In this document: positions 7,128 to 62,293 of the stretch, piece by piece | Numbering within the stretch: position 1 is the stretch's first letter | Layout: each line of letters opens with the position of its first letter | DNA from: an uncultured Burkholderiales bacterium | GTDB lineage: Bacteria; Pseudomonadota; Gammaproteobacteria; Burkholderiales; Burkholderiaceae_C | Assembly (NCBI GenBank): GCA_903932865.1 | Contig: CAIZHQ010000020.1 | Coordinates: forward strand, 204,468-268,467 | Length of the DNA stretch: 64,000 nt | Direction: 5' to 3' | Position numbers and translations under genes: made by a program | The notes under the pieces: model-generated | What the model was told of the DNA's origin: nothing | Databases searched by the model: none | Seen by the model: the letters and a program-made list of their open reading frames with translations, nothing else

Positions 7128-7173
7128 TGGTGGGCGATGCAAGTTTCGAACTTGCGACCCCTGCAGTGTGAAA
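7128..7173 (-). other. 3' half of tRNA-Val(CAC), island attachment core (copy A)
   Basis: On the minus strand this reads TTCACAC (anticodon loop, CAC), 3' anticodon stem TGCAG, variable loop, T-arm GCAAG-TTCGAAA-CTTGC, acceptor strand ATCGCCC, A and CCA. The sequence on the 5' side of the anticodon loop cannot pair, so the 5' half is missing. A tRNA 3' half of this kind is what site-specific integration into a tRNA gene leaves at the distal end of an island. Relative to copy B (33343) the T-stem differs by paired changes. Confidence 0.8.
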
Positions 7174-7383
7174 ACGCCAACATTTCACCCTTTTCCCCTT
7201 TAAAAACAACAACTTAGCTGTTTTCAACAGGGTCAAAGTAGTATACTTGTAGTATGCCCATGTAATTATAAAGTGATATTATACTTTCACTTCTGTGACT
7301 CCGGCTGTAAACCAGTGTCATTTCTTTTTACGGTGCTGTTTTTTAAGCACTTGCAGAACATTCATTGTGGCTCAGAAACGGCT

Positions 7384-7572
7384 CAATGTATATAGAGTTT
7401 TGGTTCGAGCCGGCTCAATGTATATAAAGTTTCAAGCCCCGGACCGGCAATGTGTATGGAGTTTTGGTTGGCACCGGGCAATGTATATAAAGTTTTCGCT
7501 CAAACACACTCAATGTATATGGAGTTTTGGTTGGCACTGGGCAATGTATATAAAGTTTTGATGGCGACCATT
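7384..7572 (+). repeat. Tandem ~31.5-bp repeat array, six units (copy A)
   Basis: Units begin CAATGTATATAAAGTTTT (variants TATAGAG, TGTATGGAG) at 7384, 7416, 7448, 7479, 7511 and 7542, spaced 32, 32, 31, 32 and 31 bp. That is three helical turns, so all sites would face the same side of DNA. Two more units sit near 7771 and 7803. There are no unique spacers, so this is not CRISPR. Arm-type integrase sites or a segregation/replication protein array are possible. Confidence 0.8.
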
Positions 7573-33342: not shown

Positions 33343-33389
33343 TGGTGGGCGATGCAGGGTTTGAACCTGCGACCCCTGCAGTGTGAAAA
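33343..33389 (-). other. 3' half of tRNA-Val(CAC), island attachment core (copy B)
   Basis: Minus strand: anticodon loop TTCACAC, stem TGCAG, T-arm GCAGG-TTCAAAC-CCTGC, acceptor ATCGCCC, A, CCA. As in copy A, similarity to a tRNA stops at the anticodon loop and the 5' half is absent. There is no tRNA terminator on its CCA side; the integrase of island I is there instead. This marks the end of island I and the start of a second element. Confidence 0.82.
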
Positions 33390-33599
33390 CGCCAACATTT
33401 CACCTTTTTCCCATTTAAAAACAACAACTTAGCTGTTTTTGACTGGATCAAAGTAGTATACTTGTAGTATACCCATGTAATTACAAAGTGATATTTAAAT
33501 TTCACTTATTTGACGCTGACTGTAATCCAGTGTCATTTCTTTTTACGGTGCTGTTTTTTTAAGCACATCTCACAGTGTCATTGTGGCCCAAGAACGGGT

Positions 33600-33756
33600 C
33601 AATGTATATAGAGTTTTAGTTCCGAATGGCCAAAGTGTATGAAGTTTTAGTTCGCACTGGCTAATGTATATAAAGTTTTCGCTCAAACACACTCAATGTA
33701 TATGGAGTTTTGGTTGGCACTGGCCAATGTATATAAAGTTTTGATGGCGACGATTG
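33600..33756 (+). repeat. Tandem ~31-bp repeat array, five units (copy B)
   Basis: Unit positions (AATG or variant) are 33601, 33632, 33663, 33695 and 33726, spaced 31, 31, 32 and 31 bp. The units match CAATGTATATAAAGTTTTGG with the same variants as copy A. Units have drifted individually, but the phase is kept. Confidence 0.8.
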
Positions 33757-55681: not shown

Positions 55682-56185
55682 GTCAGGATTATGTTGCCTT
55701 TAAAAGTTGCCATAGCCTTAGCTTTGGGCTAGTGGGTCAAGTACCCATTACCCAAACCGCAAGCAGTCGTTCCCCGGATCTATCGCAAACTGTCCTTTGA
55801 ACTGTGACTGCTGTGTGCTTTAGACCGGTCACGTGATGCGCTGCATAGCGAACGACAGGTTATGGCAAGCGCTAAATATCAGCATTAGTCTAGGGATGTC
55901 CGCTACCAGCCTGAAGAAGCCACTTTATTGGGATTTGATTTCAATCCTGGCCTGCTCTTGCGATGCAACTGTCATCGAAGGACCATGCTGGGTTGAGCCG
56001 CGCTGATGAAACACTGAACGACTTCCACGGTGCTTGTTGCACCCCAAGAGTGACATACGATCCGGATAATCTTTTAGTACGTATATTTAGATCTTGAAAT
56101 GGCCCCGTGCACATAGAGTTTTGTTCATCGAACCTGGTGTGTATCGAACTTTTCCGATGAACTGTTAACTCTTTTGAACTGGCTG
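55682..56185. other. Decayed island junction (~500 bp, no intact gene)
   Basis: From left to right: ~290 bp without recognised features, an integrase 3'-end remnant (about 55973-56060), a short linker, and two degenerate array-like units near 56108 and 56138 (ACATAGAGTTTTG and TGTATCGAACTTTT, 30 bp apart). No tRNA fragment remains. ORF 55941-56201 is not a gene; it reads through the remnant and the array. Confidence 0.6.
55973..56060 (-). pseudogene. Integrase C-terminal remnant, relative of the 32278 gene
   Basis: Nucleotides such as CATGCTGGGTTGAGC, GTGCTTGTTGCACC and CCAAGAGTGACATA align with the 3' end of the integrase at 32278 in order and spacing. The minus-strand translation reads VQQAPWKSFSVSSARLNPAW against the intact AQQARWQSVSSSTAQLNPTW. 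Everything upstream in the gene is gone. It represents the right end of a second element that once had its own integrase. Confidence 0.72.
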
Positions 56186-56837: not shown

Positions 56838-57236
56838 ATGGACACCAATTTGACCCTGGACCAACTCAGCGCGCTGACCGATTTGCCGCTGAGAACGATC
56901 CGCTATTACATCCAACTCGGCTTGGTTGATCGACATGAAGGCGATCGAAAACATGCCCGGTACACCCAAAAGCACCTGGACCAAGTGCTGCAGGTTCGCG
57001 CCATGGCGGATCAGGGCATGCCCCTGGAACGAATCAAGCAACTGATCAACGGAATCACAACGCCCCCGCCCCTTCCAAAGGCTGCGGGTGACATCTCTGT
57101 CATCAGCAAAGTGTTCATCGCCCCCGGCGTTGAACTGCACCTAGAACCGCAAATTGCGGGTCTCTCGCCTGAAAAACTCCGTCTATTTGTCCGTTCCGTG
57201 CTCACTACCTGGGAAGAAATCAATGCAAGCGAATAA
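56838..57236 (+). CDS. MerR-family regulator (short, no ligand domain)
   Basis: 132 aa from ATG 56838. The winged helix is residues ~5-72 (LTLDQLSALTDLPLRTIRYYIQLGLVDRHEGDRKHARYTQKHLDQVLQVRAMADQGMPLERIKQLI), with a short linker PPPLPK. The last ~50 residues (VISKVFIAPGVELHLEPQIAGLSPEKLRLFVRSV) are not a known metal- or drug-binding domain and could be a docking tail. The stop lies 14 nt inside the next gene, so the two proteins are translationally coupled. Confidence 0.88.
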   Translation: MDTNLTLDQLSALTDLPLRTIRYYIQLGLVDRHEGDRKHARYTQKHLDQVLQVRAMADQGMPLERIKQLINGITTPPPLPKAAGDISVISKVFIAPGVELHLEPQIAGLSPEKLRLFVRSVLTTWEEINASE

Positions 57237-59652
57237 AAAACAAATTGGACTGCACGCCCAGGACATGGAAGCCAACATTGGGCTGGTGTCGGCCCATGTG
57301 ACTGGACGTCTCAATGGCTTGGTGGCCCAGATCAAGGTTCGCCAGGTTTACAAGAACTGGTCAGATGACAACGTCGAATGCGTCTACACCTTCCCTCTGG
57401 GATGGCAAAGCGTCCTTTTGGGCATGCGAGTGGAACTGAACGGCAAAAGCATGACCGGTACCGTCAAGCCCAAGAAAGTAGCCGAAGCGCAATATGAAGA
57501 GGCCATCAGCAGCGGTGACTTGCCAGTCATGCTGGAGCGGTCAGGTAAAGACCTGTACACGGCCAATATCGGCAACATACAGACTGGGGATGAGGTGGTC
57601 ATTGAACTTGACTACGCTCAAATCCTGAAAGCCGAAGATGGCGCAATTCGATTCAGCTTGCCCACGACCATTGCACCGCGATACGGGGATGCATCGGCTG
57701 CGGGCTTGAAGCCGCACCAACAAGCTGAACCCAATCCACAGGCCGAGCATCGCCTATTTCTGAATCTTGAACTGTCTGAGAACCTGAGCCAGGGCACGGT
57801 TTACAGCCCCAGCCATGAAATCCAGCTTAGCCGTCAAGGCAACCAATGCGCCTTGAAGTTGGAGGGCGCAGCATGGCTAGACCGGGATTTCATCTTGGTC
57901 ATTGACCGGCTGGGCGATATGAACTTCGCCGTCGCAGCGCATGACCCGATGCGCCCAGGAGAAGCCACCGTCTTGACTGGCAGTGTGTACCGTCCAACCT
58001 GCGTTAGAAAGCAGCACCCCGTCTCCATCAAGGTCCTGGTCGACTGCTCTGGCTCCATGGAGGGCGACAGCATTGAACAGGCCAAAGACTGCCTCAGCTG
58101 GCTGTTTGGGCAGCTGAATAATACGGACCAAGTCTCCTTCACGCGGTTTGGCAGCACTGTTCACCACGAACAACCGGAACTGAAGCCTTGCTCCATCATT
58201 TACCGCCAGCTCTTGAAGGCAGCAACACGTCGGTTGAATGCGAATATGAGCGGTACCGAGATTGATGCGGCGTTGAAAGAAGTCATCAGTATTGAGAGTG
58301 GTGAATCAGAGGAAACAAAAAATTCGGCGATCTTGTTGATCACCGACGGCGAGGTCTGGAACATTGAACAGACCATCGCCACAGTGCGCGCCTCTGGGCA
58401 ACGCATATATGCCGTGGGCGTGGGCTCTGCGCCATCAGAAAGTCTGCTCAAAGACATGGCAGAAGTCACAGGCGGCGCTTGTGAAATGGTCACACCCCGA
58501 GAAAACATGCAAAAAGCCGTCGAACGTCTGTTGATCCAGATTCGGCAAACACAGGCGATCGAACACGAGGTTGTATGTGGAGCGCCTAACGTCTGGCAGT
58601 CCAAATCCTCAGGGCATGCCGCAGATGGCAGCTCCTTGATGTCATGGATGCAAATCAATACTCAAGGCAGCCCGCTGGATGAACTGAACGTGGTCCAGAC
58701 CGTTTATCCCCACGGTCAACAAACATCCTGCCCCGTCATTTGGGATGAGACCCTTGACCTCTCTCGCATTGCAGCCGCATTGCGCTTGAACGATATAGCA
58801 AAGGCCAAAGAGCGAGAGCGCCTCGCTGTCGAATATCAACTGGTCACCAGCGAAACCAATTTAATTCTTGTTCACGAAAGAGCTGAAAACGAAAAAGCAG
58901 ATGACATGCCAGAGTTGCACCAGGTGAAGCCTATGCTGGCTGCCGGATGGAGTGGTAACGGAGTTGCTGCTTATAGAAGAGCAGCCCCTTCGCTTCAAGT
59001 CATGCGATCTGGTTGTGACAACGTACCCTTCATAGCTGAATCGCGAATCGATATGAGCATGTCTGTTCCGGCCATGTGGCGATCGAATCGATCACATTCT
59101 GCCGCCCGAGTTGATGGGATGGCTAATGCAGGCATGGATGACATTGAGATACCGGCTTTTCTGAGGAAACAAGAGTCGTCCTCCGATTCAAAGCCCGTCA
59201 AGACGTTCGTCCAGAAATTCAAGGACATCGTCAGTACACCCAATAAACCGCCGCAAAGCACGCACACGGTCAAAAAACCACAGGGCACATCAGATGAGCT
59301 GAAGGCCATCCTGGCCAATAAGACCAACGCAAAGAACCCAATTCATGAATTGCTGAGCAGCTTCAACCAGGTAGCCCTGACGCACACGAGATTCAGATCT
59401 GCACTTGCCGCATGCCTTCGAACAAACCAAGCCAACTACATGGAGTGGTTGATCACAAAGCACATGAAGGCTGCTGGCTCTGGAGCCCCAATTTGGGCGA
59501 TTTTCATCAACTGGGCAGCGGAAAACCTATCCGTCGAACTCGATCGGCATGCAGAAAGGATATTGAGCGACTTCCTGTCGCCGATTGACCGCGATCTACA
59601 ACAGGCGATCTATGCAGAGCTGTCCGAATTAAAACAAGAAGCTGCGGTCTGA
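57223..59652 (+). CDS. VIT and von Willebrand factor A domain protein
   Basis: 809 aa from ATG 57223, inside the MerR gene. The VIT domain is residues ~15-135 (SAHVTGRLNGLVAQIKVRQVYKN, VYTFPL). The VWA domain is ~268-445 with an intact metal site Asp274-x-Ser276-x-Ser278 (VLVDCSGSMEGDS), a Thr in MSGTEIDAAL and Asp in LITDGEVW. There is no signal peptide or membrane segment, so it is cytoplasmic. The region ~610-720 is low-complexity; the C-terminal ~90 residues are helical (LSSFNQVALTHTRFRSALAACL). The function is not known; the coupled MerR suggests a regulator-partner pair. Confidence 0.9.
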   Translation: MQANKKQIGLHAQDMEANIGLVSAHVTGRLNGLVAQIKVRQVYKNWSDDNVECVYTFPLGWQSVLLGMRVELNGKSMTGTVKPKKVAEAQYEEAISSGDLPVMLERSGKDLYTANIGNIQTGDEVVIELDYAQILKAEDGAIRFSLPTTIAPRYGDASAAGLKPHQQAEPNPQAEHRLFLNLELSENLSQGTVYSPSHEIQLSRQGNQCALKLEGAAWLDRDFILVIDRLGDMNFAVAAHDPMRPGEATVLTGSVYRPTCVRKQHPVSIKVLVDCSGSMEGDSIEQAKDCLSWLFGQLNNTDQVSFTRFGSTVHHEQPELKPCSIIYRQLLKAATRRLNANMSGTEIDAALKEVISIESGESEETKNSAILLITDGEVWNIEQTIATVRASGQRIYAVGVGSAPSESLLKDMAEVTGGACEMVTPRENMQKAVERLLIQIRQTQAIEHEVVCGAPNVWQSKSSGHAADGSSLMSWMQINTQGSPLDELNVVQTVYPHGQQTSCPVIWDETLDLSRIAAALRLNDIAKAKERERLAVEYQLVTSETNLILVHERAENEKADDMPELHQVKPMLAAGWSGNGVAAYRRAAPSLQVMRSGCDNVPFIAESRIDMSMSVPAMWRSNRSHSAARVDGMANAGMDDIEIPAFLRKQESSSDSKPVKTFVQKFKDIVSTPNKPPQSTHTVKKPQGTSDELKAILANKTNAKNPIHELLSSFNQVALTHTRFRSALAACLRTNQANYMEWLITKHMKAAGSGAPIWAIFINWAAENLSVELDRHAERILSDFLSPIDRDLQQAIYAELSELKQEAAV

Positions 59653-59663
59653 TTGGCATGAAA

Positions 59664-59720
59664 CTAGACCGCAATCCGGTTTAAAACATCAAGCTTCTGC
59701 TCCAGCGCGTAGCTCTACCA
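59664..59720 (-). pseudogene. 3'-end remnant of an integrase like the 60902 gene
   Basis: The minus-strand translation SYALEQKLDVLNRIAV-stop matches the C-terminus of the 60902 integrase (GYTLEQKLEVLNRISI-stop), with stop codons in equivalent positions and similar DNA (AAGCTTCTGCTCCAGCGCGTA against TAGCTTTTGTTCAAGCGTATA). Stops occur further upstream, so only ~15-20 codons remain. Confidence 0.75.
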
Positions 59721-59797
59721 GCCCTACATCCAGGTTGACGATGAGTTTTTCAGAAACTATCATGCAGCATGAATGCATGAACTTTAAGGAAAGCGCA

Positions 59798-60058
59798 ATG
59801 TCTTACCCCGCAACTGACAGCAAGATGGTCAAATCCATCGGCGCAAGTGGCCAAATCTCTTTGGGCAAAGAGTTCGCGGGAAGACAAGTCCTGATTGAGT
59901 CGCCAGCTAAAGGTGTGTGGATCATTCGGACTGCCACCATAACTCCCGATCATGAGCCTTGGCCTGAAGAAGAAAAGGCTCAAACTGGACTCAAAAAAGG
60001 CCGTACCGGCAAGACACCATCACACGATCAAACGTCACGAAAAAAATCTCAGGCCTGA
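59798..60058 (+). CDS. AbrB-like antitoxin-type small protein
   Basis: 86 aa from ATG 59798, with AAGGAAAG upstream. The core VKSIGASGQISLGKEFAGRQVLIESPAKGVWIIRTATITPDHEPWP resembles a single swapped-hairpin AbrB/SpoVT-type DNA-binding domain found in antitoxins, followed by a basic tail (KKGRTGKTPSHDQTSRKKSQA). It lies 52 nt before the Fic gene in the same direction, the expected order for an antitoxin-toxin pair. The longer track start (59735) is unsupported. Confidence 0.68.
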   Translation: MSYPATDSKMVKSIGASGQISLGKEFAGRQVLIESPAKGVWIIRTATITPDHEPWPEEEKAQTGLKKGRTGKTPSHDQTSRKKSQA

Positions 60059-60110
60059 GGGCATCCGAGGTTTTCACAGAAATGACATTTGTCCATGGAG
60101 CAAGATAAAA

Positions 60111-60896
60111 ATGATTGACCTGTTTGCCGCTTTAGGCTTTAGCTGGAACTGCGAAAAGATTCCTCAGCAGATTCCTACCCACTCGATTGATCGAGTAACT
60201 TTTCATTTCCATCGAATGCTGACTACGTATGTTTGGGACGCATCAGTGCTTGAAGGCAATCCCTTTACGTTTCCAGAAGTGAAAACTTTGCTTGAAGGTG
60301 TGACGGTCGGTGGCCGGAAAATTTCCGATCAAGAGCAAGTACTGAACTTGGCCGAAAGCTCCAAATACCTGCTGTCACTGGTCAAAGCTGGAAAGTTCGA
60401 GCTGGACAAAATCACATTCACCCAGCTACATGGACTGGTAGCAAAAAATGAAGCGCTGGAATGGGGACATTTTCGTGGAGAAGGTCTAGAGACTAACTAC
60501 ACACCCGACGTTGGCCTAGGTCCTGAAGGTCGCTACACACCACTACCCACCGTGCCCGGAGCCCCGGAGCTCAACCGTGTTTTTTCCGAAGGCCTGCAAG
60601 CGTTAACCAATAAAGTCGAAAGTCCATTTGAAAGAGCTGGTGCATTTTTTCTGTTCGGAGCCTTGCAGCAGTTCTTTTTTGACGGCAACAAACGCACATC
60701 ACGCTTCATGATGAATGGAATTTTGATGTCCTCCGGTATGGATGCCATCAGCATTCCAGCGGCAAAGGCGCAAGACTTTAACGAAAAAATGGTCCGTTTC
60801 TACTTGACTAAAGACGCCACTGAAATGATGGAATTTTTAGTTAGCTGTCATCCAGATGCCATCACCATTCAACAAAACAATCCGCAAGTGGATTGA
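60111..60896 (+). CDS. Fic-family protein with altered catalytic motif
   Basis: 261 aa from ATG 60111; GGAG lies 10 nt upstream, whereas ORF 59952 would overlap the antitoxin. Fic motif: HxFx(D/E)GN(G/K)RxxR would be expected, but here it reads Q-F-F-F-D-G-N-K-R-T-S-R, so the catalytic His position is Gln; all anion-binding residues are kept. A class II-like inhibitory helix may be present in WDASVLEGNPF (~residues 40-50), with Ala instead of Ser/Thr at the usual first position. Fic proteins transfer AMP or phosphate to target proteins; with Gln, activity is doubtful or different. The 3' end lies 5 nt from the convergent integrase. Confidence 0.85.
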   Translation: MIDLFAALGFSWNCEKIPQQIPTHSIDRVTFHFHRMLTTYVWDASVLEGNPFTFPEVKTLLEGVTVGGRKISDQEQVLNLAESSKYLLSLVKAGKFELDKITFTQLHGLVAKNEALEWGHFRGEGLETNYTPDVGLGPEGRYTPLPTVPGAPELNRVFSEGLQALTNKVESPFERAGAFFLFGALQQFFFDGNKRTSRFMMNGILMSSGMDAISIPAAKAQDFNEKMVRFYLTKDATEMMEFLVSCHPDAITIQQNNPQVD

Positions 60897-60901
60897 TTGC
60901 T

Positions 60902-61927
60902 TTAAATTGAAATGCGATTTAAGACTTCTAGCTTTTGTTCAAGCGTATAGCCTACTGTGCCGTAGTTATTGAACTCAGAGCCACCACTGGAGTGGCCTGT
61001 GATACTTTCTGCCAAACGCGTGGGAATGTCGTTACAGGCCTTCATCCTGTCGATCAGGGCATGACGGAACATGTGACTTCTGAAGTCTAGGTCGGCCAGG
61101 TATTTGTTCATGATGGCCGAGCAGCTGTTGCTGCCATGGTAGTGCGCATACTGCGGCACCAGCCATTCACTGCCTTCGCACTTGGCCATCTCCACCAGTC
61201 GCTTGGCCGCAAACAGCGACACCCCTACCAACGGTACGGCACGAATACTGCTCTTGTTCTTTCGATTGGAGAGTGCATTTTTGCGGATCCAAATGTGCGG
61301 AATCGGGTGATCAAAAACACAATCCTCAACACGGGCGTACACAGGTTCAGACAGTCGCAAGCCAGTATTCATCTGGATCAGCCCAATGAGCTTGTAGGGC
61401 TTGAACCGCGTCATCAACTTTTGTTTGACTGCCAGCAACAAGTCATGGGTAATGACAGGCATTGGCCTGCGCTCATCTTCACCGGAAATTTTCAGAGCTC
61501 GGAATGGGCTCAATCTGTCGATGTCCAGACATCTGAATGCAACATTGAGCATGGCGTTCAAGATCGCCGTTTGCTTGCGGACTGTCACAGGCTTCAAACC
61601 CAAACTCAGCAAATGGTCGCGAAAAATGCAGGCATGCGCATAACGTAGATCACAGAGGTACAAATCACCCACCAAGGACGAGAAGCGCCTGAAAACATGC
61701 AAGACATCGCCCTTGAATTTACGGCCATCACCTGCATCACTTTCATGGAGATAAATCGCCACGGCATCCGAAATTTTGGGTTCGGCATGCATTTCTTTGC
61801 GGATGAAATAGTTGCCAATGAGCTCTGCAACAAACGACTCATCAAAGTCAACACCCCTTACCCTAACCAACCGCCGCAAGACGGCTTCAGGAGTTGATTT
61901 AACAATCTCAAAGTGGCCGTCACTCAT
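60902..61927 (-). CDS. Tyrosine recombinase (integrase), second family
   Basis: 341 aa from ATG 61927 (MSDGHFEIVKST); the track's first Met is 57 nt upstream. Arg I in MNTGLRLSEPVYARVED, Lys region IRKNALSNRKNKSSIRAVPL, HMFRHALIDRMK (His-x-x-Arg), TGHSSGG (His) and NNYGTVGYTL (Tyr). It is clearly different in sequence from the integrase at 32278. A remnant of a relative's 3' end lies at 59664. It may belong to a separate mobile unit together with the antitoxin-Fic pair. Confidence 0.9.
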   Translation of the reverse strand: MSDGHFEIVKSTPEAVLRRLVRVRGVDFDESFVAELIGNYFIRKEMHAEPKISDAVAIYLHESDAGDGRKFKGDVLHVFRRFSSLVGDLYLCDLRYAHACIFRDHLLSLGLKPVTVRKQTAILNAMLNVAFRCLDIDRLSPFRALKISGEDERRPMPVITHDLLLAVKQKLMTRFKPYKLIGLIQMNTGLRLSEPVYARVEDCVFDHPIPHIWIRKNALSNRKNKSSIRAVPLVGVSLFAAKRLVEMAKCEGSEWLVPQYAHYHGSNSCSAIMNKYLADLDFRSHMFRHALIDRMKACNDIPTRLAESITGHSSGGSEFNNYGTVGYTLEQKLEVLNRISI

Positions 61928-62293
61928 GCTCAAAATGGTCAATTTGCATACAACAAATTTACTGTCAAAGACGCAGATGGACAACCGGATTTAGACGAAT
62001 TTTCAGGTCGATCTAGACAGAAAACCCACGAAATTTTCTACCCAAACTAAGCGCTACAACACCTCTCCTGCAGGCCTTGGATCCGTGTCGATACCGGAAT
62101 CCAAATCAGCCGTGTAGCGCTTGTTTTATGCGTTGCAAGATGCCCGATTTATTGAATACCCAATAGAGCCAACAGACTTTGCCCGTGGGTATGCAGAAAC
62201 CATTTTTGCTATGCCTTTCATCCCCATGACCAAAGATTTTAAAAACAGCCATATTCGGGGCCAAAACCCCGCGTTTTCGGGTCTTTCGACGGT
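61928..62293. other. Intergenic region right of the second integrase
   Basis: 366 bp with no credible gene. It contains an exact inverted repeat AAGCGCTACA (62049-62058) / TGTAGCGCTT (62113-62122) separated by 54 bp, a candidate att or operator site next to the integrase, and near 62255-62275 a hairpin with GGGG...CCCC arms that could end the leftward gene at 62294. ORF 62121-62348 is not convincing. Confidence 0.55.

What the first reader, a model, noticed from the sequence alone, without database searches (positions are those of the whole stretch)
60111..60896. Fic protein with Gln at the catalytic His position, paired with an AbrB-like antitoxin
The motif Q-F-F-F-D-G-N-K-R-T-S-R keeps the phosphate-binding and Arg residues but lacks the His needed for AMP transfer. 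With an antitoxin-like gene 52 nt upstream this could be an altered-chemistry toxin, a decoy regulator, or an inactive relic preserved for another purpose.
Basis: partly seen in the sequence, partly recalled or inferred. Interest (0 to 1): 0.68.

Follow-up and report, generated by a model that had tools for sequence, protein, structure and literature searches.

The report
Gln-type Fic protein behind AbrB-like gene
A freshwater bacterium carries a Fic-fold protein whose usual catalytic histidine is glutamine; that swap is an old, strictly kept hallmark of a whole uncharacterised branch of Fic proteins, and in this genus the gene occupies the slot normally held by a different partner behind a small AbrB-like regulator.

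Summary
In detail: 60111-60896 (+) encodes a 261-aa Fic protein with Gln187 where other Fics have the catalytic His, 52 nt after an AbrB-like gene (59798-60058). Gln is not a local mutation. 79 of 81 aligned copies keep it (CAA/CAG about equal), none has His although one base change would give it, and dN/dS is about 0.07. Gln- and His-bearing Fics split at one branch, even with the motif removed. Khater and Mohanty described this as Doc clade D2 in 2015 (PMC4454073); I found no experiment on it. The phosphate-binding residues and the autoinhibitory Glu48 are kept, so a relic is unlikely and a nucleotide-binding protein without His-dependent AMPylation is most likely. The AbrB pairing is partly right: most relatives stand alone. 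In Limnohabitans the pair is constant (5 of 5) and looks like a partner swap: in 11 of 12 Fic-less relatives of the small gene, a conserved ~106-aa gene stands where Fic stands here, behind a similar operator. New observation: many solitary Gln-Fic genes carry direct-repeat boxes 45-46 bp apart around their promoter, paired nowhere else in four genomes, which suggests self-regulation. Biochemical function remains inferred.

The parts
60111..60896 (+). Gln-type Fic protein, 261 aa
   Evidence: ORF and translation; Pfam Fic; AF2 model pLDDT 94 and Foldseek to FICD
60669..60704 (+). Fic core motif QFFFDGNKRTSR; Q187 (60669-60671) in the place of the catalytic His; D191, N193, R195, R198 kept
   Evidence: alignments and codon table
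60252..60254 (+). Glu48 codon of the class II-type inhibitory helix (ASVLEGN)
   Evidence: invariant among the 31 close copies; kept in nearly all Gln-Fics
59798..60058 (+). small AbrB-like gene, 86 aa; relatives elsewhere precede a ~106-aa gene instead of Fic
59735..59763 (+). sigma-70-like promoter TTGACG-17-TATCAT of the two-gene unit
   Evidence: about as many as expected by chance; kept in all five Fic-linked copies
59760..59780 (.). operator-like palindrome TCATGCAGCATGA (59760-59772) and TCATGCA-N7-TGCATGA, overlapping the -10 hexamer
   Evidence: the first palindrome is in 5 of 5 Fic-linked copies; related TTCGTGC-N-GCACGAA in several 106-aa-linked relatives
60059..60110 (+). 52-nt gap between the two genes, without the direct-repeat boxes seen upstream of solitary Gln-Fic genes

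Best explanation
This is a functional member of an old clade of Fic-fold proteins in which Gln stands permanently in the place of the catalytic His (shown). It keeps the metal, anion-hole and arginine residues that bind nucleotide phosphates, and the autoinhibitory Glu, so it most likely still binds a nucleotide but cannot carry out His-dependent AMPylation (inferred). I think it acts as a nucleotide-gated binding or regulatory protein, not a classical AMPylating toxin (inferred). In Limnohabitans it is the second gene of an operon led by an AbrB-like gene with a palindrome at the -10 hexamer; in Fic-less relatives that place is held by a ~106-aa gene, so Fic took over another module's partner slot (arrangement shown; the direction, autorepression and any neutralisation are inferred).
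For: Gln187 kept in 79/81 copies with CAA 40 and CAG 39, never His; median dN/dS 0.07 over 32 usable pairs. D191, N193, R195, R198 and E48 invariant among 31 rows. Gln and His Fics separate by one change (97/89; 100/99 with the motif cut out). Gln goes with GNKR and His with GNGR in the rows where the motif is intact. FICD-like fold at high confidence. Partner swap: 11 of 12 Fic-less relatives of the small gene are followed by the ~106-aa gene, 0 of 5 Fic-linked ones are; palindrome at the same place.
Against: No biochemical data. Selection on all active-site residues would equally fit an enzyme that needs no general base. The wider family shows no partner or target gene that would explain a regulatory role. 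P0002's fold and DNA binding are not demonstrated. The five Limnohabitans copies descend from one event, so their constancy is weak evidence for interaction.
Confidence: 0.5

Rival explanations
1. An active toxin with altered chemistry: Gln187 is the working residue, nucleotidyl or phosphoryl groups go to an acceptor that needs no strong general base, and the AbrB-like protein is its antitoxin.
For: Whole pocket under purifying selection; GNKR as in Doc, which phosphorylates (established knowledge); TA-like operon layout; AbrB-Fic pairs are over-represented in genomes (PMC2701414); loci often lie near other TA genes.
Against: Most family members have no antitoxin-like neighbour at all, which is odd for a free toxin unless Glu48 restrains it; His is essential for the characterised Fic-1 (PMC13327609).
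Confidence: 0.28
2. A removal enzyme: Glu48 positions water and the protein hydrolyses AMP from proteins modified by another Fic.
For: Glu48 kept in nearly every Gln-Fic; nearest solved structures are FICD, a deAMPylase; His-bearing Fics occur in the same genome.
Against: In Fic-1-AntF the His is essential for deAMPylation too, while the residues kept here (E139, R143, R146 equivalents) are reported as needed for AMPylation only (PMC13327609).
Confidence: 0.07
3. An inactive relic or a mere structural leftover.
For: The catalytic His is gone; 4 of 81 copies have stops and a few have frameshifts or truncations; the Zeta-fused Acinetobacter copies have lost E48 and R198 as well.
Against: dN/dS about 0.07, both synonymous Gln codons, invariant pocket, spread over several phyla.
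Confidence: 0.04
4. The small gene and Fic are neighbours without functional link: a mobile Fic landed behind an orphaned regulator and only uses its promoter. (This concerns the pairing and can be true together with the best explanation of the Fic protein itself.)
For: Family-wide lack of the small gene; the small gene has its own usual partner; its C-terminal tail diverges among Limnohabitans copies.
Against: Pair, promoter and palindrome are kept in all five genomes although upstream flanks differ from 59720 on in two of them.
Confidence: 0.4

Closest known systems
Gln-motif Fic/Doc clade D2 of Khater and Mohanty 2015 (PMC4454073)
   Same: Consensus Qx[FY]x[DE][GV]NKR fits QFFFDGNKR exactly; mostly single-domain; bacterial; interpreted there as possibly not dead
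   Different: They placed it in the Doc subfamily; here the whole-length match is to FICD-like proteins, and the kept inhibitory Glu, the promoter boxes and the Limnohabitans pairing are added
Class II Fic enzymes (FICD, EfFic)
   Same: Fold and inhibitory-helix Glu with following Gly-Asn
   Different: Catalytic His absent; GNK instead of GNG; Ala44 where the [S/T]xxxE[G/N] motif has Ser or Thr
Campylobacter fetus Fic2 (PMC5651007)
   Same: Fic with a degenerate core motif that is still functional (toxic)
   Different: Fic2 keeps and needs its His; this one lacks it
CccR of Yersinia (PMC9755527)
   Same: Fic-domain protein that represses its own promoter through sites near -35 and -10
   Different: CccR has an HTH domain and an active His; Gln-Fics of this size show no HTH
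AbrB-Fic/Doc toxin-antitoxin pairs (PMC2701414)
   Same: Small AbrB-like gene directly before a Fic gene
   Different: Here the pair is confined to one genus and the small gene's usual partner is a ~106-aa protein

Membership tests
Fic/DOC superfamily (PF02661) | profile match above cut-off and Fic fold | tested here: met
   24.7 bits against 24; Foldseek E 7e-10 to FICD
Fic/DOC superfamily, AMPylating enzymes | catalytic His in HxFx[DE]GN[GK]R | tested here: not met
   Gln187; no His in 81 copies
Clade D2 (Gln-type Fic) | motif Qx[FY]x[DE][GV]NKR and one clade apart from His-Fics | tested here: met
   motif; split 97/89 and 100/99. Identity with the published 45 sequences was not checked row by row
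Class II Fic | N-terminal inhibitory helix [S/T]xxxE[G/N] | tested here: inconclusive
   Glu48-Gly49 invariant, but Ala44 in the S/T place; other Gln-Fics have S or T
Class I FicT-FicA pair | separate antitoxin with [S/T]xxxE[G/N] | tested here: not met
   no such motif in the 86-aa sequence, read by eye
AbrB-Fic type II toxin-antitoxin module | two-gene operon with autoregulatory operator | tested here: inconclusive
   adjacency, promoter and palindrome present; binding not testable; AbrB fold not established
AbrB-Fic type II toxin-antitoxin module | pair conserved across the toxin family | tested here: not met
   small gene found only in the Limnohabitans copies
AbrB-Fic type II toxin-antitoxin module | toxicity neutralised by the small protein | not testable with these tools
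   needs expression experiments

The most novel reading that the evidence does not exclude
Gln-type Fics are self-regulating nucleotide sensors: the Fic fold itself, without an HTH, binds direct-repeat boxes (AAACCGTGTTTTGTGATTGA type, 45-46 and 56 bp apart) around its own promoter, with the nucleotide pocket as switch. In Limnohabitans this self-control was replaced by an AbrB-like repressor taken from another module.
Probability: 0.18. Interest if true: 0.75.

Novelty: new variant of a known kind. Interest (0 to 1): 0.5.

Why it matters
Fic proteins are defined by their catalytic His. A widespread clade that has kept everything else and never takes His back is either a new chemistry or a large family of Fic-fold regulators; it has been named for a decade and, as far as I could find, never tested. 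The promoter boxes and the Limnohabitans operon give concrete, simple experiments, and the swapped partner is a clear case of recombination between toxin-antitoxin-like modules.

Tried and rejected
Conserved neighbour of the Gln-Fic family: none among about 80 loci. A parE-Fic-parC arrangement in L035 and L048 suggested topoisomerase IV as target, but only in two related loci. Zeta-toxin link: fusion in Acinetobacter plasmids and one adjacent Zeta gene (L020), not general. Pfam, NCBIfam and PDB searches for the 106-aa partner found nothing useful; only a weak PADLOC match to the C-terminal part of 'NsnC', and a literature search for that name gave nothing relevant. AF2 of the small protein was too poor to call AbrB; it was not used for a fold search. 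Idea that the 106-aa gene was replaced in situ: flanks of the Fic-less modules do not match the window, so only the module, not the locus, can be compared. Host regulon as explanation of the boxes: not supported in four genomes.

Full report
Observation. The ORF 60111-60896 (+) encodes 261 aa. An upstream ATG at 59952 would give 314 aa, but the family begins at 60111. Pfam Fic matches just above its cut-off (24.7 against 24 bits). The AF2 model (mean pLDDT 94) matches human FICD structures best, as does the sequence profile. The core motif reads Q187-F-F-F-D191-G-N193-K-R195-T-S-R198. More distant Gln-Fics read YLQPFADVNKRTSR against KIHPFVDGNGRTAR in His-Fics, so Gln really stands in the place of His.

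Is Gln conserved? A scan of GTDB genomes gave 80 loci, 58-97% identical. In 81 aligned copies (80 loci plus the window's own) codon 187 is CAA 40 times and CAG 39 times; the exceptions are Leu in L052 and Lys in L058, and L058 carries a stop at codon 207. His codons are one base away from both Gln codons, yet none occurs. The median NG86 dN/dS is 0.07 over 32 pairs with usable dS. Gln persists in copies around 40% identical (L101-L104, L116, L128) and in contigs classed as viral (L174-L178), and in two other subfamilies of about 380 and 450-500 aa. One divergent copy (L127) has lost the motif altogether. On a tree of 56 rows, Gln and His rows part at one branch (97/89, 98% of bootstraps); with the motif cut out and 43 rows, 100/99. 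The rooting, and hence the direction His to Gln, is assumed. This matches clade D2 of Khater and Mohanty (45 sequences, motif Qx[FY]x[DE][GV]NKR; PMC4454073). My searches found no experiment on it.

What is kept. Among the 31 close rows E48, R122, D191, N193, K194, R195 and R198 are invariant. In rows with an intact motif Gln goes with GNK and His with GNG. The inhibitory Glu is kept in nearly all Gln-Fics; the Acinetobacter Zeta-toxin fusion has lost both Glu48 and Arg198, which in class II Fics form a salt bridge (salt bridge from general knowledge). In Fic-1, His135 is needed for AMPylation and deAMPylation alike, while E139, R143 and R146 are summarised as specific for AMPylation (PMC13327609; the passages shown are not fully consistent on R146). 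So loss of His should abolish both known reactions, while the kept residues argue that a nucleotide is still bound. That step is inference.

Partner. The small gene 59798-60058 lies 52 nt upstream. It was not found next to Gln-Fic outside Limnohabitans, and about 80 loci show no shared neighbour. In a genus sample of 60 genomes, the five with a close Gln-Fic all carry the small gene next to it. Of twelve relatives of the small gene (44-65% identical) without Fic nearby, eleven (L087, L088, L089, L091, L092, L168-L173; not L090) are followed by a conserved ~106-aa gene; none of the five Fic-linked copies is. More remote relatives (L093-L097) lack it. The flanks of the two kinds of module do not match, so this is a comparison of modules, not an in-place replacement. 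The arrangement is best described as a partner swap; which state came first is not shown.

Operator. Upstream of the small gene stand TTGACG-17-TATCAT and, overlapping its end, TCATGCAGCATGA, in all five Fic-linked copies. The consensus scan finds promoters about as often in shuffled sequence, so the weight lies on conservation; the 21-bp palindrome pattern occurs once in the window against 0.06 expected (one mismatch allowed), though it was chosen after being seen. Several 106-aa-linked relatives carry TTCGTGC-N-GCACGAA or close forms at a similar place (L168, L169, L170, L092 and others, by eye). This suggests autorepression by the small protein, not shown. Its AbrB nature is a sequence impression only.

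Solitary Gln-Fics. About twenty loci carry direct-repeat boxes 45-46 bp apart, the nearer one usually 32-34 nt before the start codon; some have a second spacing of 55-58 bp. At spacing 46, 12 loci reach 14 of 20 matches against 0.1 in shuffles. The loci are related, so these counts are not independent, and one of the twenty rows tabulated (L043) is a poor match. Two box types exist (AAACCGGATT and AAACCGTGTT); copies within a locus agree more (0.73) than between types (0.55). In four genomes (G473, G491, G559, G471) the paired box hits lie only at the Gln-Fic promoter, with single one-mismatch hits elsewhere near chance level (my estimate about two per genome); a fifth genome had none. As Fic is the only conserved gene there, I propose that it, or an unlinked factor, acts on these boxes. 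Limnohabitans copies lack them.

Verdict. The Gln is real, ancient and selected; the clade is known but untested; the AbrB link is specific to Limnohabitans; the function is inferred. Searches failed or were empty and were repeated.

Noticed in passing
L035:2788-3768 and L048:3001-3765: Gln-Fic lies between genes that look like parE and parC (topoisomerase IV), the enzyme that canonical FicT proteins AMPylate; seen in two related loci only, identified by eye.
   Followed up: partly
L084:280-1782 (Acinetobacter plasmid): Zeta toxin fused to a degenerate Gln-Fic domain (FEGEKRTAH, Glu48 to Ala), directly behind a 75-aa gene; Acinetobacter is the commonest genus (96 records) among the plasmid hits.
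   Followed up: partly
L087:1112-1432 (-), L168-L173: Conserved ~106-aa protein, usual partner of the AbrB-like gene, without Pfam or PDB match; weak PADLOC match to the C-terminal part of NsnC (5e-6).
   Followed up: partly
60902-61984 (-): Tyrosine-recombinase-like gene directly downstream, also present in the other Limnohabitans copies (cut short in L006).
   Followed up: no
59719-59720: Similarity to L005 and L006 begins exactly here; their upstream flank instead resembles a repeat at window 55898-56154.
   Followed up: partly
7166-7400 and 33381-33616: Two similar stretches in the window that also match both flanks of the module in L006, probably parts of an insertion element.
   Followed up: no
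57154-59652: Large protein upstream that reads like a VIT/von Willebrand type A protein, preceded by a MerR-like gene; by eye only.
   Followed up: no
L105:1667-1728 (-): A Gln-Fic remnant whose two promoter boxes still match the pattern exactly.
   Followed up: no
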